Virus record (IMG/VR): IMGVR_UViG_3300024221_000033
Span: 1 to 33,703 of that record
From: a virus
Direction: 5' to 3' (one strand)
DNA: 33,703 nt
The translations under genes were made by a program, and so were the position numbers. The notes under the pieces were generated by a model. It made no database searches, was not told where the DNA came from, and saw only the letters and a list, made by a program, of their open reading frames with translations. The stretch's first letter is position 1. Each line of letters opens with the position of its first letter. Below, piece by piece: positions 6,309-33,703 of the stretch.

Positions 6309-6508
6309 ACTAAAAAGTCCTCTTCAGGTTGCTTTGGTTTTTTGGGTTTACCCACTTTTTCGGGTTTCTCACTTTTCTCAGCTACAAGGGCAGCCGCCTG
6401 CGCCTTGTATGCCTCGAATTCCTTGAATACCTGCTTAATGTCGGGCTTGGGTTTCTTGTTCTCATTTGCCCGGTTAATTAGGTCATCGAATCTTGATAAA
6501 TCAGCCAA
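6305..6508 (-). CDS. Small basic late protein, unknown
   Basis: 67 residues, Lys- and Pro-rich: a helical N-terminal half (LSRFDDLINRANENKK, then IKQVFKEFEAYKAQAA) and a disordered basic tail (EKPEKVGKPKKPKQPEED). It starts 8 nt inside the 3' end of the portal gene and its stop overlaps the next start by 4 nt. It lies between portal and scaffold, as do small unknown genes in related phages. No domain recognised. Confidence 0.62.
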   Translation of the reverse strand: MADLSRFDDLINRANENKKPKPDIKQVFKEFEAYKAQAAALVAEKSEKPEKVGKPKKPKQPEEDFLV

Positions 6509-8591
6509 TGTTTACGTTCCTCGCTTGTGTTTTCTCTAGCTCCAGCTCCTCCTCGTCCATCTCGACCTTGTGAGCGTGCTGCTTCACGTCGATCATGGTC
6601 TTGGTCTCTTCGTTCTCCTCGTGAAACTCCTGCTTCAGGGACTCTAGCTGAACCCGGTTGGACTCCTTCAGCGCATCCAGCTCTAGCTGGCCCTCTACAA
6701 CAGCCGTTTGGCGATCTGCCAGTTGCGCTTGGAACTGCATCTGCTCCATCTGCATCTGCTCCTGAGCCTGCTGCTGCTGCTGCTGCATCTGCTGCTGCTG
6801 CATCTGCTGCTGCTGGTAGGCGGGATCGTTTGGATCTTGCAGGAACGCCGCACCGTCCTTGATGTTCAGCAGCTCAAAGGCCCGGGACAGAAGGGCGTGG
6901 CGCTGCTGCTGGCCGTAGAGGCCGCCAGCGGTTGGGTCTGCTGGGTTGGAGCTGAACTGGGTGTCCAGAGTCAGCAGCTTCTGGGCCTCTGCCTGCTGCT
7001 CCTCCGGGGTCAGTGCCACGGCCACCGTCATCTCGGTGCGGTCACCAAGCGCCGAGGGCGTTACGGGCTGGAACGATCCATCGAGCTGTAGCATCACGGT
7101 CTCGTTCTCGTACTCCACGCCCAGCCTGTACAGGTCCTGCATCAACGGCTTCAGGAAGTTCTCAGCGAAGTTGCGGCACATGACCATGATCCGCCGGTTG
7201 CTGGCGTTCATAAACGTATTGATTAAGTCGGAGCTGTTCTGCTTGCTGATCGCAGTTGTGTCCATGCCCCGCGACATCCTGCTGGAGCCAGATCGCTGCT
7301 CTTTTTCTTGCTCGAAGTTTTCGATGGCGGCGTATACGTTGCTGTTTAGCTGCGGAGTGGGCAGGGGCCGCACCACGCTCTCAGGGTTCGGCGACATTAC
7401 ATCCACCACGGCGCCAACTCTGTTGTCTAATAAGTCGCGTGGGTTCTTCACTAGGCTGAGGTTCGCAACCCAGCGGCTGGTGGTGGTCAACATAAGGTGA
7501 TCGACCACGCCGCGCTTGAGTGAGGACATAGTCTTCTGCAAGTCACATAACTGGTCCGCCAGCGACATGCCATAGAAGCGATGCGGAAGCGGGAAGGGCG
7601 TAAAGGTGCGGAAAGGCATCTCGGCCACCATCTCGATGTCCAGCATCACCCGGCGGCTGTGGATGCACTTGTAGTAAACGCACTCATTTAACTCGGGATC
7701 GTGGCGCTTGATGTAAGACTCGTACAGCGTCACATACTCCCTGTCCCGGGAGTCATCCAAGCCAAAGCGGTCATGGCGGAAGCTATCGACGGAGTCTCGA
7801 CCAATCGAGCCATCCTCCTTCAGCATGTCCTCCTCGTCGAGCTTGGCGACCACATCGGGATCGAAGCCCTCAGACAGCAGCTCGCCACGGGTACGCGCCA
7901 TGCGGTGCGAGCAAAAATCAGAGTCCTGCACGGTCTTGGCGCGTGGGTTGATCAAGAAGTCTTCAGGCTCCACGGTCTCGACGCAGACCTTGCTGATGTC
8001 GATGCGGCGGCGGGTGGAGCCAGAAATCGCCACCTGAGAGTAGGCGGCTCCGGTCTGCTCGTCCACGACCTCGACCGACTCCTCCATCAAATCAATCAGC
8101 TCCACGTCGGGCGCTGACATCATGACGTTGAACTCGTTCTCGCTGAACTGCTCAAACTCCTCGGACTCGTAGCGGTAGTCTGCCTTCCAATACCTTTTCA
8201 CCACCCCGGTCTTGGCAACCAGCGCGTCGTGGATTACATCCGCGAGGATCTTGTAGCCGTTGTTCTGGCGGTAAAAGTTGTAGTTAGTCCACGCGCTAGC
8301 CAGCCGGGCGGTGTTCACATCGTCTGGAGACTGCGGGTCGAAGCGGCAGATGTTCCTGTCAGCCGAGAAAGTTTCTAGCATGAGCGCCTTGCAAGCCTCG
8401 ACAGCGTCAAAAACATCTCGGCTTACATGCTGAGAGCGGCCACGGACCTCGTTCCCCATCGGCTCGCCGTAATAATATCGGTGGGCCTTATCACGCTGAT
8501 CACCTACCTCAGAATTGGCGTATGTGTCAGCCGCATCAATATTCCGCTCCAGTGTCGAGAGCAGCTCCTGCTCGTCAATAATCATACTCAT
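6501..8591 (-). CDS. Portal protein, P22 gp1-like
   Basis: 696 residues from the ATG at 8591 (AAGGA about 10 nt upstream, 17-nt overlap with TerL). A frame start at 8648 would overlap TerL by 74 nt and is less likely. The early segment (DKAHRYYYGEPMGNEVRGRS, then VFDAVEACKALMLETF) and the middle (VAEMPFRTFTPFPLPHRFYG, then DLQKTMSSLKRGVVDHLML) are typical of the large podoviral portal family whose 12-mer forms the DNA channel. The C-terminal barrel region is Gln- and Met-rich, with a CAG-codon run at residues about 592-608, then a long coiled coil. In P22-like portals this end forms a helical barrel inside the head. Position between TerL and scaffold is canonical. Confidence 0.9.
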   Translation of the reverse strand: MSMIIDEQELLSTLERNIDAADTYANSEVGDQRDKAHRYYYGEPMGNEVRGRSQHVSRDVFDAVEACKALMLETFSADRNICRFDPQSPDDVNTARLASAWTNYNFYRQNNGYKILADVIHDALVAKTGVVKRYWKADYRYESEEFEQFSENEFNVMMSAPDVELIDLMEESVEVVDEQTGAAYSQVAISGSTRRRIDISKVCVETVEPEDFLINPRAKTVQDSDFCSHRMARTRGELLSEGFDPDVVAKLDEEDMLKEDGSIGRDSVDSFRHDRFGLDDSRDREYVTLYESYIKRHDPELNECVYYKCIHSRRVMLDIEMVAEMPFRTFTPFPLPHRFYGMSLADQLCDLQKTMSSLKRGVVDHLMLTTTSRWVANLSLVKNPRDLLDNRVGAVVDVMSPNPESVVRPLPTPQLNSNVYAAIENFEQEKEQRSGSSRMSRGMDTTAISKQNSSDLINTFMNASNRRIMVMCRNFAENFLKPLMQDLYRLGVEYENETVMLQLDGSFQPVTPSALGDRTEMTVAVALTPEEQQAEAQKLLTLDTQFSSNPADPTAGGLYGQQQRHALLSRAFELLNIKDGAAFLQDPNDPAYQQQQMQQQQMQQQQQQAQEQMQMEQMQFQAQLADRQTAVVEGQLELDALKESNRVQLESLKQEFHEENEETKTMIDVKQHAHKVEMDEEELELEKTQARNVNIG
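6768..6816. repeat. CAG/CTG trinucleotide repeat in the portal gene
   Basis: On the plus strand CTG units run from 6768 to 6816, broken by two CAT triplets. On the coding strand they encode Gln runs separated by Met in the C-terminal barrel of the portal. Such a tract is prone to length change by slippage and by assembly error. Confidence 0.85.
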
Positions 8592-10062
8592 GGCTTGTGT
8601 ATCCTTCTTTGTTTCCAAGTTGATGCTGCTCTGCGTTGTTTTGACCAAATCGGGTCACTGATATGGCCGCGTAGCGTGTAGCGTCCATCAAGTCGTCGAA
8701 TTCTTTGTGAATCTTCCCCTTCTTCCTGTGATATCTTCTGAACTCCTCGAACCAAGGGGATAGAGTGTTAAAAACCTGTAATCTGCCGGTTCGGAACCGC
8801 TCTAACATTTCCATCAAACCGGGTTCGACGTAGTTTGTGCCGTCGGCGTTGGTGAAGCGGCCAACCATCAACACCCCGGCCTCGGTATACATCTCTGCAA
8901 GCGTCTTGCCGGAGCCTTTCTCGGTGGAGTCGCCGTCGTGGGGGTAGATCATTGGGATTGTTTTGCCGCGAGACTTGATGGCAGAGGCGTGAACCGCCGG
9001 TATCTCGCCCTCTTTCTTGTAAATGTCATATACATAGATACAGTCGTTATCTGGGTTGTAGGCCGTCCACACAACGGTTGTGGGGTGGGTTATTCCAAAG
9101 TCGATGGCCGCCAGTTTTTTGTAGTGGCCCGGTATTTCGAAGGGATCGCACTTAACGACCTCCTCGGAGAGCGCGAACACCATGCCCTCGCCAAGCACCG
9201 GGATGCCCTTGGAGCGCATGTCTCTTTGATACTCGGGAATCGCAGCCAGTAGCTGCTCCTTGGTCTCTTTGTTTAGGTGCTTCGCGTCTTGCCAAGTGGC
9301 GTTTGCGAGGTGCTGCCCTTTGGCGCGGTTATCTAAGAACTGGCTGACAAGCTCAGTCACGCCATTTTCAGGCGTGAATGTCATCGTGACATAACCTCCT
9401 TCTCCGCCGTTCCCGGTGGCTGTACGGGTCAAACACTGGGGGTATATGGTAGGGTCAGTTGGCTCCTCATCGATCCAAATAAAATCTTGTGAGCTGCCCA
9501 TTAGTACATGTTGGCCCTGTGTGTAAGACTTGAACGATACCAATGAGGTGTTGCCGGTGGCGTATCGGACCGCAACGTCTCTTGGCAATCTTGGAGTTCC
9601 CATTGCAGGGGTGACTTGATAGACCTGATCCTGCCGAACTAGGCCGTTGCCGTCGAACTTGCCGTCACCTAAATAGGCACCGAACAACTCCTTGACCACA
9701 ACGTCTCGGAGCTGCTCACCAGATACCCCGAGGCACCAGACTGACACAGGCTTGTTGAATCTTATGCCTTTCCACCAGTCTGGGTACGCTCCCGTGAGGT
9801 GGTACGCTACCTCAACCGCCATAGAAAATGTTTTTCCAACTCGGTTTGCTGCCATAAGCAAACGCTGCTTGTTCTCGCCCCCGGCCTTGTAAAACTTTTG
9901 CTGCCACGGGTAGGGCTTGAAGTGGTCTAGCCGGTGGGTTCGCTTATGTTCCTTAACGACAGCGATGGCTTTGGCTATATCCGCCGCTTTTTCCTGCTGC
10001 TCTTCTGTCAGTTCAGGAGTCCCTTTTTTGCGAACCGCTTTTTTTGAAGTGCTTACTGTCAC
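8575..10062 (-). CDS. terL: Terminase large subunit (packaging ATPase-nuclease)
   Basis: 495 residues from a GTG start (10060-10062) that overlaps the stop of a small upstream ORF (GTGA). The ATPase domain shows Walker A AANRVGKT near residues 71-78 and Walker B FIWIDEE at 194-200 with the catalytic Glu. The C-terminal RNase H-like nuclease begins at LAAIDFGITHPT (Asp321) and has a late acidic motif DLMDATRYA near 465-473. Length and motifs fit the P22 gp2/Terminase_6 group. With TerS it cuts concatemers and drives DNA through the portal. Headful packaging is likely from relatives but not shown by the sequence. Confidence 0.93.
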   Translation of the reverse strand: MTVSTSKKAVRKKGTPELTEEQQEKAADIAKAIAVVKEHKRTHRLDHFKPYPWQQKFYKAGGENKQRLLMAANRVGKTFSMAVEVAYHLTGAYPDWWKGIRFNKPVSVWCLGVSGEQLRDVVVKELFGAYLGDGKFDGNGLVRQDQVYQVTPAMGTPRLPRDVAVRYATGNTSLVSFKSYTQGQHVLMGSSQDFIWIDEEPTDPTIYPQCLTRTATGNGGEGGYVTMTFTPENGVTELVSQFLDNRAKGQHLANATWQDAKHLNKETKEQLLAAIPEYQRDMRSKGIPVLGEGMVFALSEEVVKCDPFEIPGHYKKLAAIDFGITHPTTVVWTAYNPDNDCIYVYDIYKKEGEIPAVHASAIKSRGKTIPMIYPHDGDSTEKGSGKTLAEMYTEAGVLMVGRFTNADGTNYVEPGLMEMLERFRTGRLQVFNTLSPWFEEFRRYHRKKGKIHKEFDDLMDATRYAAISVTRFGQNNAEQHQLGNKEGYTSHEYDY

Positions 10063-21587: not shown

Positions 21588-22232
21588 GTGAGCGAGTTCT
21601 CCACTCGGTTAAAGCAGTCGTGTCAGGACAACCCTGATGTGCCTGAGTATGGGAAGGGCGAGCAGGTATATCTCTCTCAGCGTCTTGGCGTATCACAAGA
21701 GGCTGTCCGCAAGTGGTTCGCGGGGGACAGCAAGCCCAAGGCGGCAGTGGGCCGCAAGCTTGCCGAGCTGCTCGGCGTGGATTACGTTTGGTTGGCGTTG
21801 GGTACATCGCACGGTGAGATTGAGAAAAGACGAGAGGCCGCAGGGCGTCAGGACTCTGCCGTGTACGCGTTGATGAGCTTCCTGATTGAGAAAGGCTATA
21901 GCGCCGCCTTCGATAACGACCATGAAAAAATAGACATAACCACCATCTACCAAGGGCAACAGAATCACATCTCTGTTCAACTTGCCGAGGGGAAAAAGGA
22001 CAAGCTGATGGCCTCATTCAGATTGTCGGTGATCAACGATGTCAGCACAATTATAGCTGTCAGAACAAACACCTTTAGCCTGTCCTATGACTTTATCTGG
22101 GCCGGTCCAGAGGTTTGGGCTAACCACGGGACGCGGGAGGGCAACGAGGTGGTGCTGCGGTTCAAGAACCCGCAGAAGAAAAAGTACACCGTGGGTGGCA
22201 CGAAGCTGACGCGGTATCTGGAGGGCTACTAA
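21588..22232 (+). CDS. CI-like XRE repressor without S24 peptidase
   Basis: 214 residues from GTG at 21588. An XRE-type helix-turn-helix lies at about residues 26-50 (QVYLSQRLGVSQEAVRKWFA), followed by a linker helix and a C-terminal domain of about 110 residues (KGYSAAFDNDHEKIDITTIY, then NTFSLSYDFIWAGPEVW). The S24/LexA Ser-Lys peptidase motifs are absent, so RecA-triggered self-cleavage is not expected. Its own promoter carries two operators and the same operator stands before two other early promoters. It is most likely the lysogenic repressor, with induction by another route. Confidence 0.82.
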   Translation: MSEFSTRLKQSCQDNPDVPEYGKGEQVYLSQRLGVSQEAVRKWFAGDSKPKAAVGRKLAELLGVDYVWLALGTSHGEIEKRREAAGRQDSAVYALMSFLIEKGYSAAFDNDHEKIDITTIYQGQQNHISVQLAEGKKDKLMASFRLSVINDVSTIIAVRTNTFSLSYDFIWAGPEVWANHGTREGNEVVLRFKNPQKKKYTVGGTKLTRYLEGY

Positions 22233-22453: not shown

Positions 22454-22719
22454 GCGAAAACAAAGAGGCATTTTCCGAGTGGGTCGAGAGCAAGACAGAC
22501 ATGATCAATAACCCCCCGCACTATAACAAAGGCAAGATCGAGTGCATCAAATATCTGGAGGACAATCTAGGCGAGGGCTACTCCTACTATCTAGAGGGCA
22601 ACATTAAGAAGTACCTCCACCGCTGGCGCTACAAGGAAGCCCCGGTGGAAGATCTGCGGAAGGCCGCGTGGTATCTAGGTAAGCTCATTGAGAGCCAAGT
22701 CTTTTCAAAACCTGAGTAG
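22450..22719 (+). CDS. DUF3310 protein
   Basis: 89 residues; ATG overlaps the previous stop by 4 nt. NNPPHYNKGKIECIKYLEDN and LEGNIKKYLHRWRYKE are the DUF3310 signature, a small phage protein often placed in nucleotide or replication regions; biochemical role not settled. Its last 35 nt overlap the 3' end of the integrase gene on the other strand. It is the last gene of the rightward operon. A 6-bp stem at 22710-22728 without T run is a poor terminator. Confidence 0.86.
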   Translation: MSENKEAFSEWVESKTDMINNPPHYNKGKIECIKYLEDNLGEGYSYYLEGNIKKYLHRWRYKEAPVEDLRKAAWYLGKLIESQVFSKPE

Positions 22720-23662
22720 CATTCAGGTGCGTGTATCGGCGCAGCATGTTGATGTCCCGGTGGCCTGAAAACAGCGCCACCGTCATGGCATCCAGTCCCA
22801 GCTCAAACAAGCGGCTGCACCCCTCGTGACGCAGGTCGTGCCAGCGAGCATCTAGGCCGATACGGTTGCGTGAACGCTGAAAGGCCGCGCTAACGGTATC
22901 TCCGTTGTAGGGGAATATCCGGGAGCCGTTGCGGGGCTGGCGCTGGATGATCTCAGCAGCCTCTTGCAACAGCGGCACACGAGAGTATCGCTTGCCTTCC
23001 GGGTGCTTGCGCCACAGTCCGATGCTGCGGCCCTCGTCGCCCAGCTCGTCCCATGTCATGCTCAACACCTCTCCGCGCCGCATAGCCGTCAGGACACTGA
23101 ACCTGATCAGGTCTGCCAGCGGCAAGCGGGTGTCTGCGTTCTGCACGATCAGATCGATCTCAGCGTCAGTGACGCGCCGCTCGCGCTCGTTGGACTCGGA
23201 GATAACCTGCTTTGATTTCAAGAAGTGCATGGCCTTCTCGTACTCGTCGATCTTGGGCTTGCAGTCCCACGCCGCCTCGGCGGCCTTGAGCACGACACCA
23301 ATGTAGATCATGTCCTGCTGCACCGTACTGCCCTGCGCGGTCTTGGCCCTGCTGTTGGCGTAGCTTATGAGCGTAGAGGACTTGAGGTCTTTGAGGCTGT
23401 GGTGCCCTATGTTTCGCCGTACCAGACGCAGCACACCCTGCTTGGTATCACCGAATGGCCCGTACTCGTCAATGTACTTATCGACGCACCTGCCGAAGTT
23501 CATCTGATCCTCGCGGTAGTTGCCCTTGGCGATATTGGCCTCGGTCTCAGTCATCCACGACTGGGCCAGTGCCTTCTTGGGGAAGGTCTTGGAGATCGCT
23601 GGCATGCCAGCCTTGCGTATTAGAACCCGGTAGCTGTCGCCACGCTTTTGTATCACACCCAT
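22685..23662 (-). CDS. int: Tyrosine recombinase integrase
   Basis: 325 residues from ATG at 23662 (AGAGGG 9 nt upstream); a frame to 23722 exists but reaches into the promoter. An N-terminal arm-binding beta part (GVIQKRGDSYRVLIRKAG), a core-binding helical part, then the catalytic domain: Arg195 (LTAMRRGEVLS), His275 and Arg278 (WHDLRHEG), His301 (SGHRD) and nucleophile Tyr310 (MLRRYTH). All key residues are present, so the enzyme should integrate the phage genome into the host chromosome. Its 3' end overlaps the convergent DUF3310 gene by 35 nt. Confidence 0.93.
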   Translation of the reverse strand: MGVIQKRGDSYRVLIRKAGMPAISKTFPKKALAQSWMTETEANIAKGNYREDQMNFGRCVDKYIDEYGPFGDTKQGVLRLVRRNIGHHSLKDLKSSTLISYANSRAKTAQGSTVQQDMIYIGVVLKAAEAAWDCKPKIDEYEKAMHFLKSKQVISESNERERRVTDAEIDLIVQNADTRLPLADLIRFSVLTAMRRGEVLSMTWDELGDEGRSIGLWRKHPEGKRYSRVPLLQEAAEIIQRQPRNGSRIFPYNGDTVSAAFQRSRNRIGLDARWHDLRHEGCSRLFELGLDAMTVALFSGHRDINMLRRYTHLNATQVLKRLGSQ

Positions 23663-23693
23663 TTGGTACACCCTCTGGTACAGTTTGAGTGTG

Positions 23694-23722
23694 AGTCTAC
23701 GTTGACAACCGTGTATTGACAA
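23694..23722 (-). promoter_or_regulatory. Integrase promoter
   Basis: Minus-strand TTGTCA (23717-23722), 17-nt spacer, TAGACT (23694-23699). The spacer holds GTTGACAAC (23701-23709), a 9-bp palindrome, and a degraded operator ACAAC-N5-ATTGA (23705-23719). Repressor or excisionase control is possible. Confidence 0.55.
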
Positions 23723-24296: not shown

Positions 24297-24761
24297 CTAT
24301 GTGAATGAGTTGATTACGCCCCAGATTAAGCCAAACGCTACTATTCCACCCACCACAAAAACCGTCAATGCGACAGTGATTTGATGCATTAGCTCGTCGT
24401 GGGCCTTGCGTTTTTTCGCAAGCATAGCCATGTGCCTTTGCCGTGCGTCTTCCTGTTGCTGCTTTGCTTTCTTAAAATCTTGCAAAAGCTCTGGATCGAT
24501 CATCGCAAGCAAATCGTGAACATCCCTCCAATAACGCTCCTGCTGCTTCCGCAGTTGGGTGAGCTTAAGAAGATCGTTCTGACTAAGGGGCTTGAAGGTT
24601 CCACCTTTGCGCTCGATCTCGAAGCTGGTAAGCGCCTCACCGAAGTCGCTTATTGTCCCCATGACCTGCTGGATGCCTTCTCCGGTCTCATTAGCCTGCT
24701 TGATGAGTCCGTTAATAGAGGTCAGGATTGCTGACGCGGCTGCTACCGATTCTATTATCAT
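24297..24761 (-). CDS. Helical protein with C-terminal membrane segment
   Basis: 154 residues. A helical N-terminus (AAASAILTSINGLIKQANET), a long charged coiled coil in the middle (LQDFKKAKQQQEDARQRHMA), and one hydrophobic segment near residues 128-150 (VALTVFVVGGIVAFGLIWGV). Its ATG overlaps the stop of the large virion gene (TGATG). A tail-anchored helical protein in a virion operon could aid DNA passage or lysis, but it does not look like a holin or spanin I know. Function unknown. Confidence 0.72.
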   Translation of the reverse strand: MIIESVAAASAILTSINGLIKQANETGEGIQQVMGTISDFGEALTSFEIERKGGTFKPLSQNDLLKLTQLRKQQERYWRDVHDLLAMIDPELLQDFKKAKQQQEDARQRHMAMLAKKRKAHDELMHQITVALTVFVVGGIVAFGLIWGVINSFT

Positions 24762-27118
24762 CAGTAGGGGCTGACGTTCATCAGCGCATCTACATGCATC
24801 TTACTCTTATCTTCTAGACCCTTATAAAAATCATGCAGCGCACCGATTCCGTCAGCAGCAGTGCGGTAGACGTTCAGGCCGCCCATGTCGTAGAGGCCTT
24901 GATGTGTTCTTTGAATATCTGGCGCCAGCGCCTGCACGCCCTCAGCCAGTATACCCTTGAAGTCATCGGTGTATTGCTGCCCCAGCTCCGTGCGCGGTGA
25001 GTAGTTCAGCATCTGCCCCAGTTCGTTTTGCTGGGCCTGCAAGGCCTCAAGGCTTTGAGTTGATCCATCGGCTGTGGGCCTGCCCATGGCGTTAATATGC
25101 TGCACCCCCTGCACAAACGGTGCAGTAAGAGCCGATCCCATGTTTGCCATAAAGTCAACGCCCCCCAGAACACCGTCAGCAAAAAGCTGGGCCTTACTTG
25201 GCTGGTTGTTCTCGGAGTAGGTCAAGTAGTTTGCGCCAAGCCCACCGGCAAGCATTACAGGCCCGAGGTCGTACAGTGCGCCCTTGCCTTGGATAAAGTT
25301 TTTCAGCGCCTTCTTCTTGGTCACGCCGTCTCGCTCTGCGGTGCTTGCAACGACATCGTCAAAGACGGCCATGAACGGCCTGTCATCCGCCACGCCAGTC
25401 TCGCCACCCATCCAGACAGAGGCCTGAAACTGCGCCGGGGTCATGCCCATCTTCTCGGCTATCTGCCCTTGGAACTCCTCAAGGTATCTGTATTGAGCAT
25501 CTGAGGGACTCTTCTTGTCCTTGGGATCGCCTTTGAGTGCGGCAAAGTTGTGGGTGTCGATAGTCATCGGGGCTTGGTTGCCCTTCAGGTTCTCCGCGAA
25601 GCTCGATGTCTTGGGCCGGTTCAGGGCGGCAAAGGTGCCGTTCTCTTGAAGGTCTCGCAGGCTGTGGTCGTGGGTGGTGTGTGCAATGTGACCATACCCT
25701 TTAGGCATGTCTGCGTTGCTTAGACCGGCAAAAGGCTGGCCCTGCCTGTCAAGGACATCGAGGTAGCTGGCGCGTCGAATGTTGTTTGCCACCTTGGCGC
25801 GTGGGCTGGTTGCCGCCAATTTGTCAACATAGGAGTTAAAAGCAGATGCGCCCTGATCATCGCCAAGCTCCTCCATAAACGACTGCCGCAGCGGATCTAG
25901 GTTGTACCAGCCGAGGCCGCCTTTATCTTTGCCTATGTTCGCGTATCCCTCCATTCGGGCAGCGGTCTCTGGCGTCAGCAGCGGCTCAATTTTTGGAGAC
26001 AAGCCCCTCGGCGGATCAATTCTTTCTAAAGGCACCTGCGGGACATCTGGAACCTCTTCCAGCCTACTGAGGTCGAAGAGGGTCTCACCGGCCTTGCGTA
26101 CACCGGCCTGCGACTCTTGAGGCGCTCCCGCACCTGCGGCTGCCGTGGCGCTCAAGGTAACCGGAAGCGCGTAGCGGCGCAGGATGTTCAGGCTATCGTC
26201 GTCGAAGACTACATAGTTTTTAGTGCCTTTTTTCTCGCCTCTAGATAGTTGATCTTGGTACTGGACACCTTTTACCCCTCTGCTGGATAGGGCGTTCTCC
26301 CAGCCGTCTATTGATCCGGTTGACTTGCCAATGTTGTACAGCGCATCGGTGCCTGTCATGTTGTCGCTAACAATGTTGGCCCTGTCGCCGCCGAAGTAAT
26401 CATCTACAATCTGGGGGTCAATTGATTCTCTTGCGTCGTAAATAGCTTTCTTAACAAAATCTGATTGATCGGATATGTTGGCGTCATAGTCAAACATTTC
26501 CTCGTTCAACGCATCGATCTCTACCTCGTACATATGTCCAAAGTTCACCGGCTCGTTGCTGCTGTTTCTAAAGGCCTCCATCTCGTCCGCCATTTCGTCA
26601 GCGGCCTGACGGTAATCCTCGTCATAGTCTAAATCGCTGGCTTTTTCCCTGAAGTCCGACGGCCTGTCGTGCATCATTGCACTCTCAAGCATCTCCATGC
26701 GGGTATAGTCTTGGTTTCTATCCGCTATGCTGTATTGGTCAGACAGGTACTCCTCGAAATCATAGTCCCGCATCGTAGTCGAATCACGATAATACTCGCC
26801 CGTTTCCTTTCTCTGCGCGATGTAGTGGCCCATACCATATGCCTGACCGCCTTCGCCGGTTCCCATTTGAGATGTGTTAAACATGCCCAAGGGGTTAGGC
26901 TCACCGACCTTCTCAAAGTTCCCGTCGCGCACGATTCTCATGTGCAGGGGGTTCTCTAAGTTGGCGATGTATGTCTCCCCGGTGTCCGTGTTCCGATACC
27001 GCTGCGCCGGAGGAAACTTATGCGGGGAGCCGTGGTAGCCTGTTAGCTTTATCCTTTCCTTTGCGCTCGGCTTGGCCTCGGCAAGCTCTTTCATAAACAT
27101 ACTGAATAGATTACTCAC
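24761..27118 (-). CDS. Virion/ejection protein with ADP-ribosyltransferase-like domain
   Basis: 785 residues from GTG at 27116-27118 (AGGAGGG 8 nt upstream; overlaps the upstream stop). The N-terminal part shows YHGSPHKF (residues 28-35), GTGEGGQAYGMGHYIAQRKE, and later KGVQYQDQL and NYVVFDDDSLNILRR. This is the pattern of ART-like domains in large phage polyvalent proteins (H, Y and late strands). The middle (GLGWYNLDPLRQSFMEEL, then RPKTSSFAENLKGNQAPMTI and AQFQASVWMGGETG) is a conserved helical domain that I cannot name. The end carries Gly/Ala-rich hydrophobic stretches. It lies in a row of ejection protein genes, so it is probably injected with the DNA and may modify a host target. Confidence 0.75.
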   Translation of the reverse strand: MSNLFSMFMKELAEAKPSAKERIKLTGYHGSPHKFPPAQRYRNTDTGETYIANLENPLHMRIVRDGNFEKVGEPNPLGMFNTSQMGTGEGGQAYGMGHYIAQRKETGEYYRDSTTMRDYDFEEYLSDQYSIADRNQDYTRMEMLESAMMHDRPSDFREKASDLDYDEDYRQAADEMADEMEAFRNSSNEPVNFGHMYEVEIDALNEEMFDYDANISDQSDFVKKAIYDARESIDPQIVDDYFGGDRANIVSDNMTGTDALYNIGKSTGSIDGWENALSSRGVKGVQYQDQLSRGEKKGTKNYVVFDDDSLNILRRYALPVTLSATAAAGAGAPQESQAGVRKAGETLFDLSRLEEVPDVPQVPLERIDPPRGLSPKIEPLLTPETAARMEGYANIGKDKGGLGWYNLDPLRQSFMEELGDDQGASAFNSYVDKLAATSPRAKVANNIRRASYLDVLDRQGQPFAGLSNADMPKGYGHIAHTTHDHSLRDLQENGTFAALNRPKTSSFAENLKGNQAPMTIDTHNFAALKGDPKDKKSPSDAQYRYLEEFQGQIAEKMGMTPAQFQASVWMGGETGVADDRPFMAVFDDVVASTAERDGVTKKKALKNFIQGKGALYDLGPVMLAGGLGANYLTYSENNQPSKAQLFADGVLGGVDFMANMGSALTAPFVQGVQHINAMGRPTADGSTQSLEALQAQQNELGQMLNYSPRTELGQQYTDDFKGILAEGVQALAPDIQRTHQGLYDMGGLNVYRTAADGIGALHDFYKGLEDKSKMHVDALMNVSPY

Positions 27119-29330
27119 TAAGCGCGCCCTCCTGCTCTTTCCTCTCGGTGCCAAGGTACTGCCGCATCATCAAATTGAACGCGCCGTGGTTGGAGTCATT
27201 TAGCTTTAGCTGAAGCTCTATGCCGCCCGGAAGGTTTACCGACGGGATTGCATTAGATATTGCGCCAAACAGATCCGGCTGCTGGTTGGTGTCCAGCGCC
27301 CCGCGTGTTGCATTGCTGACACGGGCGGCGTCCGCCATACCCTTGGCGTCGAACATGCCTACCGCTATACCAGCCCCCGGCTGGGCCACGTTCGCAAACA
27401 GTTGAGCTATCCGGCTCATGGTCTCGTATGAGGTGTTGGATGTGTTCTCTGCCGCCCTCGGCACATATGTGGCCTTCTCGATCTGCGTCACCAGACCTTG
27501 CAGGGCATTGAACTGCTCCTCTCCCAGCAGTGCCTTGTAGGTGGTGGCCTTGGCGTTGAGCTTCGTTCTCAATTTCTTGCCGCTGATCATTTGCGCCGTC
27601 GTGCGGCCTGCTTCAATAGACTGATCGAACAAGTCCTTCAGAGCAAAAGTCCGCAGCTCTGCAATGGCCCCGCTGGCCTGACGCTCATCCAACAGGTTAA
27701 CGACCTGCGCCGCGCCCTCTGGTGACTGCATTACCTTCTGAAACACAGCCGATGGCGAGACCTTGTCGGTTGTAGACTTGGACTTTGAGTCTGTGAGGTC
27801 TTGCAGAACGTCCTTGTTCTCCCACAGTTGAGAGTACGAGCGCCTGCTGGCCCTTGCCTGCCTCGCGGTATCCAGAGCCTTGCGAGTGGCGTCGGTCATA
27901 TCGGGAGCAATCTGCAACTGGCTATCGAACACCTCCATCGCGTCATCTGCCGATTCAATTATGGAGTTCTTGACGTTCTCCACAATACGAGCGGCTCGCC
28001 TGTCGCTAGGGTCATACAGGGAGTTGAGTTCCTGTATCAGATTCTCGTTATTGGTCAAAGACAGTTGACGAGCCTCCACGTCATCTAAGTCAAAGGGGTT
28101 GCTTATAGGTGAGCCGGGGCGTGCAGCTCGGTAGCTGGACAGCTTGGCCTCGATGGATCTAAGGAGGTCGGTGTGGGTGTTACCGTAGTCTCGCATCATC
28201 TCGACCAAAGCGTTTTGAATTTTTTCTGTCTTAACCGGCAGCTCCGCGCCTATCTCCTCAGAGAGCGCGTTCGCCGCAGTGTACAGCTCTTGATACTGGC
28301 TCTTGTCGGCCTGCCTTGTTTCTTCCAGCGCGCCCTTGACCACGCCGCCTGTATCATCTCTGCCTACGACGCCGCCCTGCATAGAGACATCGGTGCCCCC
28401 TTGGGACTTAGCGAAGTCGTCTGCTGCGGCGAAGATGCCGTCGGTCTGCTCCTGCGTGAAGTCTCTAAACTCGTCGGAGTTACGCAGCGCGGCCTGCTCT
28501 GCTCTGAGGGTGTCAAAGTCGCCGGTCTGCTGCCCAGTGGTCAGCTTGATACCAAACTCGGTCTCAATGGCCTGATTGATGGCGGCATCTACATCGTCGG
28601 TGCTGGTCAACTTGGAGAGCATTGCCTGCGTCTCTGGCTTGAGGGTGGCTATGTCCACGCCAGACTCTTGCAGTGCGTCCTTGACCTGATCCTGCATCGG
28701 CGCAGAGGCAAGAACGCCTGTGTTTTTAAGGGCGCTGTACGCCTTTTTAAGCCCGATTGATATGCCGGTGGCGACAGGCTCCGACACCGCGCCAAGCATC
28801 ATGCCCTCGCCCATGTTAGTGAACCGGGTCTCGCCTTGATCTTTGTCTGGCAGCATGAGACCGGACTCTGCGCCGCCCAGAAAAGTGGATAGCGCGGTTC
28901 GCCCCAGAAAACCCATACCCGCTGGCACGGCTCCCTCTGCGCCAATCGCCAAGGGCGCTGCGGCAAGGACGCCGCCGGTCATATTACCGGCCAGATTGAT
29001 CCCGGGAGAGCGTTGAGCTATGGCCTGATCGACCAGCTTCTGCTGCCCTATCTCTGCCTGACGCTGCTGCGGGTCGCCTGCTCCAAACAGATCCTTAACG
29101 CCCTCAACCATGCGGTTTGCCTGTATCCCAGCGGATGTCGTGAACTGCTGTAGCCCCGACATAGGGTTGGCGTCCATCTGAGCGGACTGCATGGCAAGGA
29201 ACTGCATCTGACGATCAGACATATTCTGATCAATCTCAGCCAACTCCTCGTCCCTCATGACGCTTTCAGGCTCCATAGCCGTAAGCTCTCGAAGGCGTTT
29301 CAGCTTCTGTAGATCTGATGCTAACGTCAT
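27111..29330 (-). CDS. Internal virion (ejection) protein
   Basis: 739 residues, nearly all helical, Ala/Gln-rich. Residues about 105-200 hold Gly/Ala-rich hydrophobic stretches (GGVLAAAPLAIGAEGAVPAG, then GFLGRTALSTFLGGAESGLM) as found in podoviral proteins that leave the head and form a conduit through the envelope. The rest is coiled coil (EARQLSLTNNENLIQELNSL). Its ATG overlaps the stop of the previous gene by 4 nt. The role is inferred from composition, size and position after the tail hub, comparable with P22 gp16/gp20 or T7 gp15/16. Confidence 0.7.
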   Translation of the reverse strand: MTLASDLQKLKRLRELTAMEPESVMRDEELAEIDQNMSDRQMQFLAMQSAQMDANPMSGLQQFTTSAGIQANRMVEGVKDLFGAGDPQQRQAEIGQQKLVDQAIAQRSPGINLAGNMTGGVLAAAPLAIGAEGAVPAGMGFLGRTALSTFLGGAESGLMLPDKDQGETRFTNMGEGMMLGAVSEPVATGISIGLKKAYSALKNTGVLASAPMQDQVKDALQESGVDIATLKPETQAMLSKLTSTDDVDAAINQAIETEFGIKLTTGQQTGDFDTLRAEQAALRNSDEFRDFTQEQTDGIFAAADDFAKSQGGTDVSMQGGVVGRDDTGGVVKGALEETRQADKSQYQELYTAANALSEEIGAELPVKTEKIQNALVEMMRDYGNTHTDLLRSIEAKLSSYRAARPGSPISNPFDLDDVEARQLSLTNNENLIQELNSLYDPSDRRAARIVENVKNSIIESADDAMEVFDSQLQIAPDMTDATRKALDTARQARASRRSYSQLWENKDVLQDLTDSKSKSTTDKVSPSAVFQKVMQSPEGAAQVVNLLDERQASGAIAELRTFALKDLFDQSIEAGRTTAQMISGKKLRTKLNAKATTYKALLGEEQFNALQGLVTQIEKATYVPRAAENTSNTSYETMSRIAQLFANVAQPGAGIAVGMFDAKGMADAARVSNATRGALDTNQQPDLFGAISNAIPSVNLPGGIELQLKLNDSNHGAFNLMMRQYLGTERKEQEGALSE

Positions 29331-30577
29331 CGCTTATCCCCCGGCTGCATATTTAACTCGCCTCGCAGCCTGCGAATTTCCTGCTGGCGCTCAAAAACAT
29401 CCAAATTTTGTATGTCGCGTTGCGAGTCTCTCATAGCCTTATCGAGACCTTTTAAGAGAATAGCTCTGTACGCTTCGGCTTGTGCCTTGAACTGTTTTGG
29501 ACTTTGCCCGGTATCCAGTTGCGCCCTAGCTTGTGTTGCTGCTGTGCCTTCTGTATCAGTTATTGGGCCACCGCCTTTTAAGCCTTGGAAGGCCTCAAGA
29601 AATACATTTCCTTTGACCTTATCTACAGCCGCAACGAAATCGTAATGCTCCGTTCCGGGTTGCATTTTAGTTATCAGGTTCATGTCATTTGCCCCTGTAA
29701 AGCTATCTGCACGGGCGATGAGGCTATCAACCTCGGCTATGTTTCTTTGAAATTGCTCAACCGCAGTAGGGGCGTCGTACACCGCCTGAGCGTCTGCCTT
29801 GACTTCATCGCCAGCCACTTCGCCAACCGCCGACGAAGTCGCTTGCTCTACAACCTGCCCTTGGGTCATTGTCGAGGTGGCTACTGGCCCTTGCCCCGTG
29901 TTGGATACTGCTATGGGTATACCGTTGGGGCCGGTCATGAACTTGGCCGCGTATGCGCTGTTTGGCCCCATCGACACCGCCTCGGGGTTTCCTTGATCGT
30001 CGTACATCATTCCCATTGTTCCGTCCGCCAAGGCAACCGTTCCCATGGCCTTGCGGAGAGCGCCCGAAACGGCAGCAGACCTGTCGATACGGGCCTGCCG
30101 CAGCACGTCAAAGGCCTCCCTTGCGGTGTTGCTGGCGGCCAGTGTCGCGGACTGCGACCTAGTTAGCTGCTCCTCTGAGGGGTCGCCAAAGGGCTTCATG
30201 TTGCCCCCCGCAAGTACATTCAAAGGCCCTAGAAATAAGTTGCCTGTCTCTGCAAAGACATCGGACATGGTGGCGTTGTTTCTTTGGAACTTACTCTGCG
30301 CCATAGCCGCCATCTGCTGCGCCTGCTGTATCTGCGCGATGGCGTCGGCTCGCTCTGGCAGCATGAATTGATTAGCAGCACCCGGAACCGGGATCATGGA
30401 CTGCTGCATTCGGTAAAGATCTCGCTCATTGACGGTACCGTCATCATTAAGGCGAGGGGTCTGATAGGGCATGGCGTCTATCATACTCAGGTACTGCTCG
30501 GAGTTATCCAGCACCCCGCGCGAGGCTTCCTCTTCCTCCAGCGCCGCCTTTCTTGATGTAAAGAATGGGTTGCTCAT
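29327..30577 (-). CDS. Virion protein, probable ejection protein
   Basis: 416 residues. A helical Met/Gln-rich N-terminal region (IAQIQQAQQMAAMAQSKFQR), an Ala-rich coiled coil, and a C-terminal segment GNVFLEAFQGLKGGGPITDT followed by EGTAATQARAQLDTGQSP and a long helix (FKAQAEAYRAILLKGLDKAM). That last segment is shared with many phage virion proteins of unknown detailed role. Its end overlaps the start of the 739-residue gene. It probably belongs to the ejected complex. Confidence 0.68.
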   Translation of the reverse strand: MSNPFFTSRKAALEEEEASRGVLDNSEQYLSMIDAMPYQTPRLNDDGTVNERDLYRMQQSMIPVPGAANQFMLPERADAIAQIQQAQQMAAMAQSKFQRNNATMSDVFAETGNLFLGPLNVLAGGNMKPFGDPSEEQLTRSQSATLAASNTAREAFDVLRQARIDRSAAVSGALRKAMGTVALADGTMGMMYDDQGNPEAVSMGPNSAYAAKFMTGPNGIPIAVSNTGQGPVATSTMTQGQVVEQATSSAVGEVAGDEVKADAQAVYDAPTAVEQFQRNIAEVDSLIARADSFTGANDMNLITKMQPGTEHYDFVAAVDKVKGNVFLEAFQGLKGGGPITDTEGTAATQARAQLDTGQSPKQFKAQAEAYRAILLKGLDKAMRDSQRDIQNLDVFERQQEIRRLRGELNMQPGDKR

Positions 30578-30580
30578 TTT

Positions 30581-32107
30581 TTATTCCTTTTTACCGAAGC
30601 CGATGTTGAAGCCAGAGGATGAACCTTTCGACGAGGCAGTTGCCTGACTGAGATTGTTGGGGCCACCGATGATTGAGTTATAGAACTCCAGATTCTGGTA
30701 CGGTGCCATGCCTTGGCGGAATTGCTGGTTATATAGCTGCTGCTGGTAGTCCCTGCCATACTGGCCTGCTGCCATCTGCATGTTGTTTCCAAAGCCAAAC
30801 ATCTGAGCGCCGGTATTCATGTTGTTGGTGCCTTGGTTGCCCAAGGTGGCCGCTAATGAAGCGCCAAACTGCTGGTTCTGCATGTTATTGTTGAATGCGT
30901 TTGCGCCTATCTGGCTGCCAAAGTCCCGGGCGTCGTTGTAGGATCTGGCGTCGAACTGATTGCCTTGCTGCTGTCGGCCTAGATTATTCTCAAGCTGGCT
31001 TGCTCCAATGCCGTAGCCTTGGCTGAGAAGCGTATTCTGCGCCCCGGCGTTGTACTGGTTAGCGCCCTGCGCGAAGCCTGCATTGGTACGCATGGAGTCC
31101 TGCATGAAGTTGGCATTGGCTTGATTTGCGCCCTGCTGAAATCCGGCGTTGGATTGATTTGCTGCCTGCTGAAACGCGGCGTTCTGATTCGCTCTTCCTG
31201 CTTCAATTCCAAGCCCTTGGCTATACGCATTGCCTCTCATATTTGATGATATGTCGTATATAGCATCCTGCGCCCCGCGTGTTGCAACGCCTATTGCGTT
31301 ACCGATTCTGGAGCTGCCAGAATTCATCGATCCCGCGGCTTGGCTTTGGATGCTTGGCAGTTGATTCTCGTTTAGGTTTCGCGTTACGTCTCGGCTTGCG
31401 GCATCAATCTGCCCCTGTAGAACATCGTTGTTGATGTAGTTGTTTAGGTTGTCTTGATTGAAGCCTGCGTTGGTGGCGGCGTTCATGCCTGCCGCGTTCA
31501 TCGATGCGCTGCCCATAGCCGCTGGGTTCATTGTCGCCGCGTTCCCAGCCATCTCGTTCGCCATGCCAGAGTCCACGCCAGAGCCTTGGGCTACGCCGCC
31601 TTCCGCAACGCCTCCCGCGTATCGGTTACCGGCCCCGAATGCCGTACCAAGTGGGCTTCTTGTGTTTTTCACAAAAGAATTTTTAGGCATACCGTTGGTG
31701 GGTTGCAGACTCGGCATGTTGTTACCAAAACGCGGGGTCTGTCCATAGTGACCCATACTTTCTGGACCTTGAGATCTCATTTGCGGCATGCCAACCTGAC
31801 CGCGCATGGCTTGGTTGGCAAAGCCCAAGGCTGACTGAGATCCGCCAGCTAATGCCGACCCTTGGTTCATCATCTGGTTACCGAAGCCCGATATATTTGC
31901 CCCGCCCATGTTTTGATTGTAGAGCGCGTTAGAAAGCATCGGGTTTATCCCGGCAACGCCCTCAACCGGCATACCGCCTTGATTGTACAAAGACTGAGCG
32001 TTGCGCCTTACGTCTTGCAGAAAGGGCTGCTGCGAGGGGTCTACAAAAGTGCTCGACTGCTGCTTAGAGGAGCTTTTTTGTTTTTTGCTGCCAAAACTAA
32101 ATATCAT
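30581..32107 (-). CDS. Asn/Gln/Gly-rich virion protein with tandem repeats
   Basis: 508 residues. The N-terminus has FVDPSQQPFLQDVRRNAQSL, a motif I associate with phage internal or tail-associated proteins, then low-complexity Met/Asn/Gly-rich segments (MGSASMNAAGMNAATNAGF). Residues about 300-355 are five 11-residue repeats of the form A-N-Q-x-N-A-x-F-Q-Q-G. The C-terminus is Gly/Ser-rich with a basic end. It probably forms an extended or coiled structure in the virion; first gene of the ejection-type series after the tail hub and a small protein. Confidence 0.68.
   Translation of the reverse strand: MIFSFGSKKQKSSSKQQSSTFVDPSQQPFLQDVRRNAQSLYNQGGMPVEGVAGINPMLSNALYNQNMGGANISGFGNQMMNQGSALAGGSQSALGFANQAMRGQVGMPQMRSQGPESMGHYGQTPRFGNNMPSLQPTNGMPKNSFVKNTRSPLGTAFGAGNRYAGGVAEGGVAQGSGVDSGMANEMAGNAATMNPAAMGSASMNAAGMNAATNAGFNQDNLNNYINNDVLQGQIDAASRDVTRNLNENQLPSIQSQAAGSMNSGSSRIGNAIGVATRGAQDAIYDISSNMRGNAYSQGLGIEAGRANQNAAFQQAANQSNAGFQQGANQANANFMQDSMRTNAGFAQGANQYNAGAQNTLLSQGYGIGASQLENNLGRQQQGNQFDARSYNDARDFGSQIGANAFNNNMQNQQFGASLAATLGNQGTNNMNTGAQMFGFGNNMQMAAGQYGRDYQQQLYNQQFRQGMAPYQNLEFYNSIIGGPNNLSQATASSKGSSSGFNIGFGKKE
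31045..31195. repeat. 33-bp tandem repeats in the Asn-rich virion gene
   Basis: About four to five diverged copies of a 33-bp unit, read on the minus strand as 11-residue units such as NQSNAGFQQGA. The two best copies meet near 31140. The exact repeat of 11 codons suggests growth by unequal exchange. Confidence 0.65.
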
Positions 32108-32116
32108 GATCTTTTC

Positions 32117-32368
32117 CTATGCAATGTGCGTCCAAGCATTTGTGTCGTAGTAATAAAGTCCTCGACCAGAGCCGGGGTTCCAAGCCGTTCCGTCCGCGAA
32201 CACCACCTGACCAGTTTCCGGCTTCGATGGCTCAACGCTCAGAACCGGCAGCGTTGTCGTTTGACCGGCAACGGTGAATCCGTTGGCGATCCTGTTGAGT
32301 TCCTGCACCAGCCAGCTACGCAGGCCCACCGCGCTATCTGCCGATGTGCTTGATGGTATGTAGCTCAT
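32117..32368 (-). CDS. Small virion protein, tail-associated
   Basis: 83 residues; start overlaps the stop of the tail hub gene by 4 nt (ATGA). An amphipathic N-terminal helix (LRSWLVQELNRIANGF) is followed by a beta-rich part (GQVVFADGTAWNPGSGRGLY). The W-N-P-G-S-G-x-G-L-Y-Y-Y pattern is common in small phage structural proteins that dock on tail or fibre parts. No exact family known. Confidence 0.7.
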   Translation of the reverse strand: MSYIPSSTSADSAVGLRSWLVQELNRIANGFTVAGQTTTLPVLSVEPSKPETGQVVFADGTAWNPGSGRGLYYYDTNAWTHIA

Positions 32369-33703
32369 CGTCCTGCCACCTCCTGCACGTCGATATCGAG
32401 GCCGGTCAGACGCCAGTAGTCGGACGCTGAGGTGGACTCGATTCGCAGCGCGAAGTACCTGCCAGATGTGCGGAAGTCGATCTTGTGATCAGACTCGACG
32501 TTGAAGGTCTTATCGACTTGCCAGCGTATGCCGTCCTGCGGCGCGTCGGAGATGCCGACCTGAACGCGCACGGTGCCTGTGCCCTCTATCTGGGGCATGA
32601 TGCCCTTGAGCTGCTTGATGTTGCGCGTTGACTGACCGAGCACCTGATCTAGATCGATCTTTGTGGCCTCTAAGTAAGCTGGCATTGCCGACCCAGACAA
32701 TCCGTTTGTGTCATTCATCATGCGAACCTTGTCGCTTACAGAGTCTGCGGCAAATAGCTTGATGTTGTTGGCCTGCGTACCAAGCGAAACATTAGACCAG
32801 TAGTCGCTGGAGGCGTTCCAAGTGGCAGTCGAGTTGGTGTAATTACCACTGGTGTCCATTCGGTCAGCGATACTCAGCGCCCTAGCGTTTGGCAGGTCGA
32901 TGAACGTAAAGGCATTTTGCGTCCAGTTGTAGACCAGCGCACGATTCGCAGACTGCGAGTCTGCCGCGTCATCGTCGGCGTAGCACACCCACACCTCTGT
33001 TGTGTCTGGTATCGTCTGGCAGAACACAGAGCGTGTGTCAGCCAAGTCGTTGAAGAAGGTGCGCCTTACTTTGTTGTCCACGATGCTGCGCTTTTGGCTT
33101 CCATCGTGTAGGTAAATATCGGACTGACCTACCACAACGTGGCCGTTGGGTATCGAAGCCACAGCGCCTCTGTTGATGATGCCGTCATCGCTGAAGACCT
33201 CGCGGAAGCTGAACACGAGCGGGAAGCCGATGAAGTCCATTGCGAACACGCCGCGCTCGGCGTAAATGATGTTCGAGTTGTTCAGCGTCAACTGATCAAC
33301 CAACTCGCCGTTGGAGCCGCCCAGTGTGTTCTCACCTGACAGGTTAGTAGTGCTTGTTATGTCGTAGGAGCCGGGGATGCCGGAGGGGTCGTACTCGTCA
33401 GACCAGCGGACGGTGAATGGCCGCTTGCTGCTGCCGATCTCATAGCCGGTCATGACCAAGAAGGAGTTGAAGGGCTTGACGCACTGAGTAACCAAGTTGC
33501 TGGGCCAAGAGGGCAGGTCAGCAAAGCGAGACCCAGAAGGCAACATATATTGAGGTGCCTCAGATCCGTTGTTCATCAACATGGCTGTACCTAGCTGCGC
33601 CCCCTGCCATCGAGGCGAGTTTGAGTAGTTGGTCGAGTCCGATGTCTTGGTCACATTGGTCACGGTTGTCCCATCAAACCTATACAGCTTGTTGAGGCTT
33701 CCA
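32365..33703 (-). CDS. Tail hub/nozzle protein, P22 gp10-like, 5' end beyond window
   Basis: The frame is open to the right edge; at least 446 residues remain. A GTG at 33663 is only internal, since the upstream codons (GSLNKLYRFDGTTVTNVTK) continue the same beta-strand repeats. The protein is beta-rich with propeller-like blades: RPFTVRWSDEYDPSGIP, VFAMDFIGFPLVFSFREVF, NGHVVVGQSDIYLHDG, TEVWVCYADDD, ALVYNWTQNAFTFIDL. The C-terminal beta-sandwich ends YWRLTGLDIDVQEV. This fits hub or nozzle proteins that close the tail (P22 gp10, or more distantly T7 gp12). The missing N-terminus and the position next to fibre genes after circularisation support it. Confidence 0.8.
   Translation of the reverse strand, partial: GSLNKLYRFDGTTVTNVTKTSDSTNYSNSPRWQGAQLGTAMLMNNGSEAPQYMLPSGSRFADLPSWPSNLVTQCVKPFNSFLVMTGYEIGSSKRPFTVRWSDEYDPSGIPGSYDITSTTNLSGENTLGGSNGELVDQLTLNNSNIIYAERGVFAMDFIGFPLVFSFREVFSDDGIINRGAVASIPNGHVVVGQSDIYLHDGSQKRSIVDNKVRRTFFNDLADTRSVFCQTIPDTTEVWVCYADDDAADSQSANRALVYNWTQNAFTFIDLPNARALSIADRMDTSGNYTNSTATWNASSDYWSNVSLGTQANNIKLFAADSVSDKVRMMNDTNGLSGSAMPAYLEATKIDLDQVLGQSTRNIKQLKGIMPQIEGTGTVRVQVGISDAPQDGIRWQVDKTFNVESDHKIDFRTSGRYFALRIESTSASDYWRLTGLDIDVQEVAGR

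What the first reader, a model, noticed from the sequence alone, without database searches (positions are those of the whole stretch)
24761..27118. ADP-ribosyltransferase-like domain in a probable ejected virion protein
The N-terminal region has the YHGSPH, GTGEGGQAYGMGHY and NYVVFDDDSLNILRR pattern of ART domains in phage polyvalent proteins, fused to a conserved domain of unknown role (PKTSSF...NL..., QASVW) in the ejection gene row. Such a protein could modify host proteins as soon as DNA enters, as T4 Alt does, and in a temperate phage it might influence the lysis-lysogeny choice.
Basis: partly seen in the sequence, partly recalled or inferred. Interest (0 to 1): 0.62.

Follow-up and report, generated by a model that had tools for sequence, protein, structure and literature searches.

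The report
Ejected phage ART–DNA glycosylase fusion
A virus of bacteria appears to pack, next to its genome, one protein made of two enzymes: an ADP-ribosyltransferase and, not recognised before, a domain with the fold and catalytic residues of a DNA-repair glycosylase, so the virus may bring its own base-removing enzyme into the cell together with its DNA.

Summary
The gene is real (24761-27118, minus strand; GTG start behind AGGAGG; 785 aa, or 797 from an upstream TTG). The N-terminal ART call holds: 50 of 54 aligned relatives match Pfam ART-PolyVal, and the AlphaFold model (pLDDT 88.5) best matches a cyanophage A4 pre-ejectosome protein (Z 10.8), then tankyrases/PARPs. His and Tyr are invariant in 54/54.

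Its model (core pLDDT over 90) matches HhH-GPD DNA glycosylases: all 21 best PDB rows, led by Ogg2 8-oxoguanine glycosylase/lyase (Z 11.1); the first unrelated row has Z 4.0. All 81 relatives keep Lys-(17)-Asp-x-His, the register of Ogg2 K129/D147/H149. Activity is untested.

The protein lies in the ejection row of a LUZ24-like temperate podovirus. In relatives the same slot holds an ART alone, or the same glycosylase plus tail (about 75% identical) behind another N-terminal part, with a sharp breakpoint at the linker. Best reading: a modular polyvalent protein ejected with the DNA. Virion presence, both activities and the targets are inferred.

The parts
24761..27118 (-). whole gene, 785 aa (GTG start; ORF open to TTG at 27154 = 797 aa); residue numbers below are those of the 797-aa ORF
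   Evidence: AGGAGG about 9 nt before GTG 27118
26165..27040 (-). ART domain, aa 39-330; H41 (27032-27034), Y111 (26822-26824), N313 (26216-26218), D318 (26201-26203)
   Evidence: A3 conservation; ART-PolyVal in 50/54 relatives; fold
26105..26170 (-). hydrophobic linker ending in APQESQAG (aa 329-350); breakpoint of the domain swap lies here or just after it (26062-26118)
25268..26077 (-). HhH-GPD / Ogg2-like DNA glycosylase domain (contains DUF7178), aa 360-629; K515 (25610-25612), D533 (25556-25558), H535 (25550-25552)
   Evidence: PF23802; invariant residues; model and PDB matches; Ogg2 motif register
24764..25267 (-). C-terminal helical tail, aa 630-797, low model confidence; 75-76% identical in L007/L008
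24297..24761 (-). following gene, 154 aa, hydrophobic C-terminal stretch; 93% identical at the same place in L007
27111..29330 (-). preceding gene of the ejection row, 739 aa, function unknown
   Evidence: no phage record match
29327..30577 (-). phrog_2534 protein ('released from the phage upon host infection')
   Evidence: E 2.5e-17
30581..32107 (-). DNA ejection protein (phrog_4287); homologues in L007, L008, L104, L125, L167
   Evidence: E 4.5e-5
32365..33663 (-). LUZ24/tf-like virion structural protein
22685..23722 (-). phage integrase (temperate lifestyle)

Best explanation
The gene makes a two-enzyme polyvalent protein: a late product packed in the head of a LUZ24-like temperate podovirus and ejected with the DNA. 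Its N-terminal ART (H-Y type) would use NAD+ to modify a host macromolecule on entry. Its middle domain is an HhH-GPD DNA glycosylase of Ogg2 type that keeps the Lys of glycosylase/AP lyases, the catalytic Asp and the DxH motif; it would flip out and remove bases from DNA, most likely damaged or host-modified bases of the entering genome. The hydrophobic linkers and helical tail would serve packaging or passage. Shown here: gene, domains, folds (predicted), conserved residues, gene position, domain swapping. Inferred: packaging, ejection, catalysis, substrates.
For: ART: homology to phiGT1_5, which scores 30 bits (E 1e-6) against ART-PolyVal; 50/54 relatives match ART-PolyVal; invariant His and Tyr; model pLDDT 88.5 whose best PDB match is a cyanophage A4 pre-ejectosome chain, Z 10.8, then tankyrase/PARP Z about 8. 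Glycosylase: model core over 90; top 21 rows all HhH-GPD enzymes, Z 11.1 down to 5.1, first unrelated row 4.0; K-17-D-x-H in 81/81, same spacing as Ogg2 K129/D147/H149, with Lys changed to Gln in the DNA complex 3knt. Ejection context; other carriers lie between portal and coat genes (CRP-3 gp36 with a cell-wall hydrolase; MJing1) or after internal/lysozyme-like virion genes (CRP-901).
Against: No assay and no virion proteomics. The window ART itself does not reach any Pfam ART model, and the usual acidic third residue appears to be Asn. The helix-hairpin-helix glycines (GxG before Lys) are not kept. The sequence-level link to glycosylases is weak on its own (p 0.005-0.012 for three Ogg2 motifs against shuffles; hhalign P 0.03), and middling Z values are common for helical folds.
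Confidence: 0.6

Rival explanations
1. Same protein, but the glycosylase domain acts on host DNA: ejected base removal or AP-lyase nicking damages or reprograms the host chromosome while the ART disables a host protein.
For: Polyvalent proteins are thought to act on host targets (PMC5512222); domain swapping between close relatives is typical of arms-race effectors.
Against: The phage is temperate, so chromosome damage would harm a future prophage; no immunity gene was recognised.
Confidence: 0.15
2. The DUF7178 domain binds DNA without catalysis and tethers the ejected ART or other effectors to the entering genome.
For: HhH-GPD folds bind DNA; the hairpin motif is degenerate; the domain is joined to many different partners.
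Against: Lys, Asp and His are invariant in 81/81, which DNA binding alone would not demand.
Confidence: 0.1
3. The DUF7178 domain is a base-hypermodification enzyme of the glycosylase fold (like phage PaMx11 gp46/PUGT), not a base-excision enzyme.
For: PaMx11 gp46 is among the structural matches (Z 5.6).
Against: Ogg2 fits much better (Z 11.1); the gene lies in the ejection row and not with nucleotide-metabolism genes; no hypermodification pathway gene was seen among the genes annotated.
Confidence: 0.07
4. Both domains are mainly structural parts of the ejection apparatus; the ART fold is used as a scaffold, as it may be in the A4 pre-ejectosome.
For: The best structural match of the ART is a pre-ejectosome chain in which no ART sequence motif is detectable.
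Against: Active-site residues are invariant here; each domain can be absent from the same slot in close relatives, unlike an essential scaffold.
Confidence: 0.08

Closest known systems
ART-PolyVal (Pfam PF18760), ARTs of polyvalent proteins (Iyer et al. 2017, PMC5512222)
   Same: Same ART family by relatives and fold; His and Tyr of the active site; fused to other domains; encoded among late virion genes
   Different: The window sequence alone scores below detection; long insertion after YHGSPH (aa 55-92); invariant Asn where PARPs have Glu (inferred from alignment end-points); fused to a glycosylase-like domain
Ogg2-type 8-oxoguanine DNA glycosylase/AP lyase (MjOgg, SsOgg, Tm1821)
   Same: Fold (Z 10.5-11.1) and Lys/Asp/His register, D-x-H-x-x-R in most members
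   Different: Only 10-14% identity; helix-hairpin-helix glycines lost; WYN and ATSP..N motifs of its own; phage-borne, in the ejection row; activity unknown
DUF7178 (Pfam PF23802), phrog_3842
   Same: Member above the curated cutoff
   Different: Those families have no function assigned; here given a fold and a catalytic motif
T4 Alt
   Same: Works like it, if packaged: a head-borne ART acting at entry
   Different: Another ART clade (R-S-E, PMC5512222)
Cyanophage A4 pre-ejectosome protein (PDB 9k3a chain B, residues 1418-1606)
   Same: Closest solved structure to the ART model; part of an ejection apparatus
   Different: No recognisable sequence similarity; the paper was not available

Membership tests
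ART superfamily, ART-PolyVal type | Homology to ART-PolyVal | tested here: met
   50/54 aligned relatives match PF18760, best E 1e-7; the window's own sequence does not reach it
ART superfamily, ART-PolyVal type | ART fold | tested here: met
   Model pLDDT 88.5; tankyrases, PARP1, MbcT and ParT at Z 6.4-8.1
ART superfamily, ART-PolyVal type | Catalytic His in strand 1 and Tyr in strand 2 | tested here: met
   H41 and Y111 invariant, 54/54
ART superfamily, ART-PolyVal type | Acidic third residue in strand 5 (H-Y-D) | tested here: inconclusive
   N313 invariant at the likely PARP-Glu position; D318 five residues on is Asp in 44/54
ART superfamily, ART-PolyVal type | NAD-dependent transferase activity | not testable with these tools
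   needs an assay
HhH-GPD DNA glycosylase superfamily (Ogg2 branch) | HhH-GPD all-helical fold | tested here: met
   All 21 best VIA rows are HhH-GPD enzymes, Z 11.1 to 5.1; first unrelated row 4.0
HhH-GPD DNA glycosylase superfamily (Ogg2 branch) | Catalytic Asp, with Lys 18 residues before it in bifunctional enzymes, and D-x-H | tested here: met
   81/81 relatives; Ogg2 spacing read from solved chains
HhH-GPD DNA glycosylase superfamily (Ogg2 branch) | Helix-hairpin-helix glycines (GxG before the Lys) | tested here: not met
   N/R-P-K in place of G-x-K; hence called HhH-GPD-like, not an Ogg2 member
HhH-GPD DNA glycosylase superfamily (Ogg2 branch) | Significant match to Pfam PF22175 or PF00730 | tested here: not met
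   No hit in the window or in any A4 member
HhH-GPD DNA glycosylase superfamily (Ogg2 branch) | Base excision | not testable with these tools
   needs an assay
Polyvalent proteins | Two or more disparate enzymatic domains in one phage protein encoded among virion genes | tested here: met
   ART plus glycosylase-like fold, ejection row
Polyvalent proteins | Present in the virion and delivered to the host | not testable with these tools
   needs virion proteomics

The most novel reading that the evidence does not exclude
DUF7178 is a widespread, unrecognised family of head-packaged DNA glycosylases of phages: the virus carries its own base-excision enzyme in the capsid and ejects it with the genome, as one exchangeable module of polyvalent proteins beside ARTs, lysozymes and acetyltransferase-like domains.
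Probability: 0.5. Interest if true: 0.75.

Novelty: new variant of a known kind. Interest (0 to 1): 0.6.

Why it matters
Polyvalent proteins with ARTs are known, but a DNA glycosylase delivered with the entering genome seems not to have been described (within the papers that could be searched). If active, it gives a directly testable answer to how short-tailed phages deal with damaged or defence-modified bases before any gene is expressed, gives a function to Pfam DUF7178, and shows one ejection slot exchanging whole enzyme domains at a defined linker.

Tried and rejected
A whole-protein scan of viral contigs found no relative, because the two domains have separate relatives; searching each domain apart worked. 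The idea of a hypermodification enzyme (PUGT/aG-PT-PPlase type) was set lower because Ogg2 fits better. PADLOC and NCBIfam gave nothing relevant. PF22175 in 145 genomes of the phylum of the Opitutia MAG: none, so no Ogg2 alignment could be built there; EndoIII sequences were used instead. A tail domain shared by many proteins could not be shown: the tail profile finds only the window, L007 and L008. The link of the ART to the A4 ejectosome chain could not be seen in sequence, and that paper is not held. Influence on lysis-lysogeny: no evidence found. PDB sequence searches with the window protein or the two alignments gave only chance hits.

Full report
Observation. The ORF 24761-27154 (minus) is open for 797 aa from a TTG. 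Every motif quoted is there. Residue numbers here are those of the 797-aa ORF (subtract 12 for the GTG start).

Context. The 33.7 kb record is a virus contig. On the minus strand it holds terminase (8575-10062), portal (6501-8648), scaffold, major head protein and another virion protein at the left end and, at the right end, a virion protein related to those of LUZ24/tf-like podoviruses (32365-33663). After that come an ejection protein (30581-32107, phrog_4287), a protein of the family 'released from the phage upon host infection' (29327-30577, phrog_2534), a 739-aa gene (27111-29330), the target, a 154-aa gene with a hydrophobic C-terminal stretch, and an integrase (22685-23722). A repressor-like gene lies at 21588-22232. 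The gene order suggests a nearly complete, circularly permuted genome of a temperate LUZ24-like podovirus (inference).

N-terminal domain. It is 28-31% identical to ART regions of Sulfitobacter phage phiGT1 and of the virus vir555; phiGT1_5 scores E 1e-6 against ART-PolyVal, just under the cutoff. An alignment of 54 members (A3) keeps H41, G42, the GTGEG-Q--G loop, Y111, Y209, D301 and N313 in all rows, and 50 of 54 rows match ART-PolyVal at E up to 0.1. The AlphaFold2 model (pLDDT 88.5) matches best a chain of the cyanophage A4 pre-ejectosome (Z 10.8, 155 residues), then tankyrases, PARP1, MbcT, ParT and ART toxins. The end-points of the tankyrase-2 alignment put model residue 12 (H41) at 1031 and model residue 284 (N313) at 1138, the His and Glu of the H-Y-E triad (tankyrase numbers from own knowledge), so this branch may be H-Y-N. 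That step is inference.

Middle domain. It matches DUF7178. A search with three homologues gave 86 viral relatives and one contig of an Opitutia MAG. In the 41-row alignment A4 the only invariant Lys, Asp and His are K515, D533 and H535, and the pattern K-17 residues-D-x-H holds in all 81 loci. The model (core pLDDT over 90, all helical) matches HhH-GPD DNA glycosylases in all 21 best rows: MjOgg Z 11.1, Tm1821 10.8, SsOgg 10.6, EndoIII-3 8.2, MagIII, AGOG, MutY and phage PUGT, after which the score falls to 4.0 (Foldseek alone: Tm1821 E 0.025, probability 1.00). The aligner's notes warn that middling Z values are common for helical folds; the uniform list and the motif carry the claim. The solved Ogg2 sequences read K129-EASHFLRNVG...D147-R-H149-x-x-R, the same spacing, with the Lys replaced by Gln in the DNA complex 3knt. 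The end of the structural alignment (model 255 to chain 207) gives an offset of 48, and K176 to 129 and D194 to 147 give 47, so fold and motif agree in register. Sequence-level tests are weaker: an ungapped profile puts all four Ogg2 chains and 13 of 16 EndoIII sequences in exactly this register, with p 0.005-0.012 against shuffles for the three Ogg2 chains that keep the Lys, and 1-4% of random phage 36-mers scoring as high; hhalign to EndoIII aligns only the DTH motif (P 0.03). Predicted viral structures show the same fold in proteins named ART-PolyVal-like, cell-wall hydrolase, helicase, N-acetyltransferase and large polyvalent protein, and in 200-aa stand-alone proteins of Salinibacter and Synechococcus phages.

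Modularity. L007 and L008, from phages with closely similar neighbours (virion protein 92-97%, following gene 82-93%), carry the same glycosylase domain and tail at about 75% identity, but another N-terminal half and other genes 2 and 3 of the ejection row. DNA similarity stops at 26062 (L007, L008) and 26118 (L167), at or just after the hydrophobic linker APQESQAG. In L104 and L125 the same slot holds an ART of 367-381 aa without a glycosylase. Elsewhere the domain is joined to a lysozyme (L031) and, in CRP-3 gp36 between portal and coat genes, to a cell-wall hydrolase and a methyltransferase-like part.

Mechanism. Position and modularity fit the polyvalent proteins of PMC5512222, thought to be injected with the DNA. 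The ART would modify a host target. The glycosylase domain, with the Lys of bifunctional enzymes, would excise bases and may cut the strand. I hold the entering genome to be the likeliest substrate (about 0.4), then host DNA (0.15), a non-catalytic tether (0.1), hypermodification (0.07); the rest is open. None of this has been assayed.

Novelty. ARTs in ejected proteins are known. The word glycosylase does not occur in the polyvalent-protein paper, no held paper names DUF7178, and two literature searches for virion-borne glycosylases of phages listed no such report by title. I therefore call it a new variant of a known kind; absence from this library does not prove absence from the literature.

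Noticed in passing
window 26105-26170; L087, L089, L104, L125, L127, L007, L017, L167: Domains of these proteins are separated by a hydrophobic A/G/L-rich stretch followed by P-E/Q-E-A/S-x-A-G/S, resembling a signal-peptide h-region with an AxA site; it occurs twice in L087 and L089. The strict pattern is about 38 times denser than in other ORFs of the same loci, though mostly in related sequences. Role unknown: processing site, membrane passage or recombination hinge.
   Followed up: partly
L007 5764-7100, L008, L167 5227-6600: The alternative N-terminal part has a strongly conserved stretch HDYYGHGKHGFGFRAGGE.NAF.AHSGMFSDLARQA..TETRGQNSLLNYGP without any Pfam match, followed by a second domain starting VEAVHYSNR that may be ART-like.
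   Followed up: no
PDB 9k3a chain B, residues 1418-1606: A cyanophage pre-ejectosome protein contains a domain closer in fold to this phage ART than any PARP is.
   Followed up: partly
window 24297-24761: Small gene with coiled-coil-like stretch and hydrophobic C-terminus directly behind the target, 82-93% identical in L007/L008: possible membrane partner.
   Followed up: no
L017 3225-5567, L057 5569-7506: DUF7178 is followed by a region that reads like a GNAT acetyltransferase (GYALKGDDIVSVFN...VYSRMGFK); seen by eye only, no Pfam hit.
   Followed up: no
window 1-33703: Head genes at the left end and tail/ejection genes at the right end of the same strand suggest a circularly permuted, nearly complete genome.
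   Followed up: no
L167 (PBSV01000087.1): A 7.3 kb contig binned to an Opitutia MAG holds a 79% identical DUF7178 protein; either a prophage, and so a hint at the host, or a binning error.
   Followed up: no
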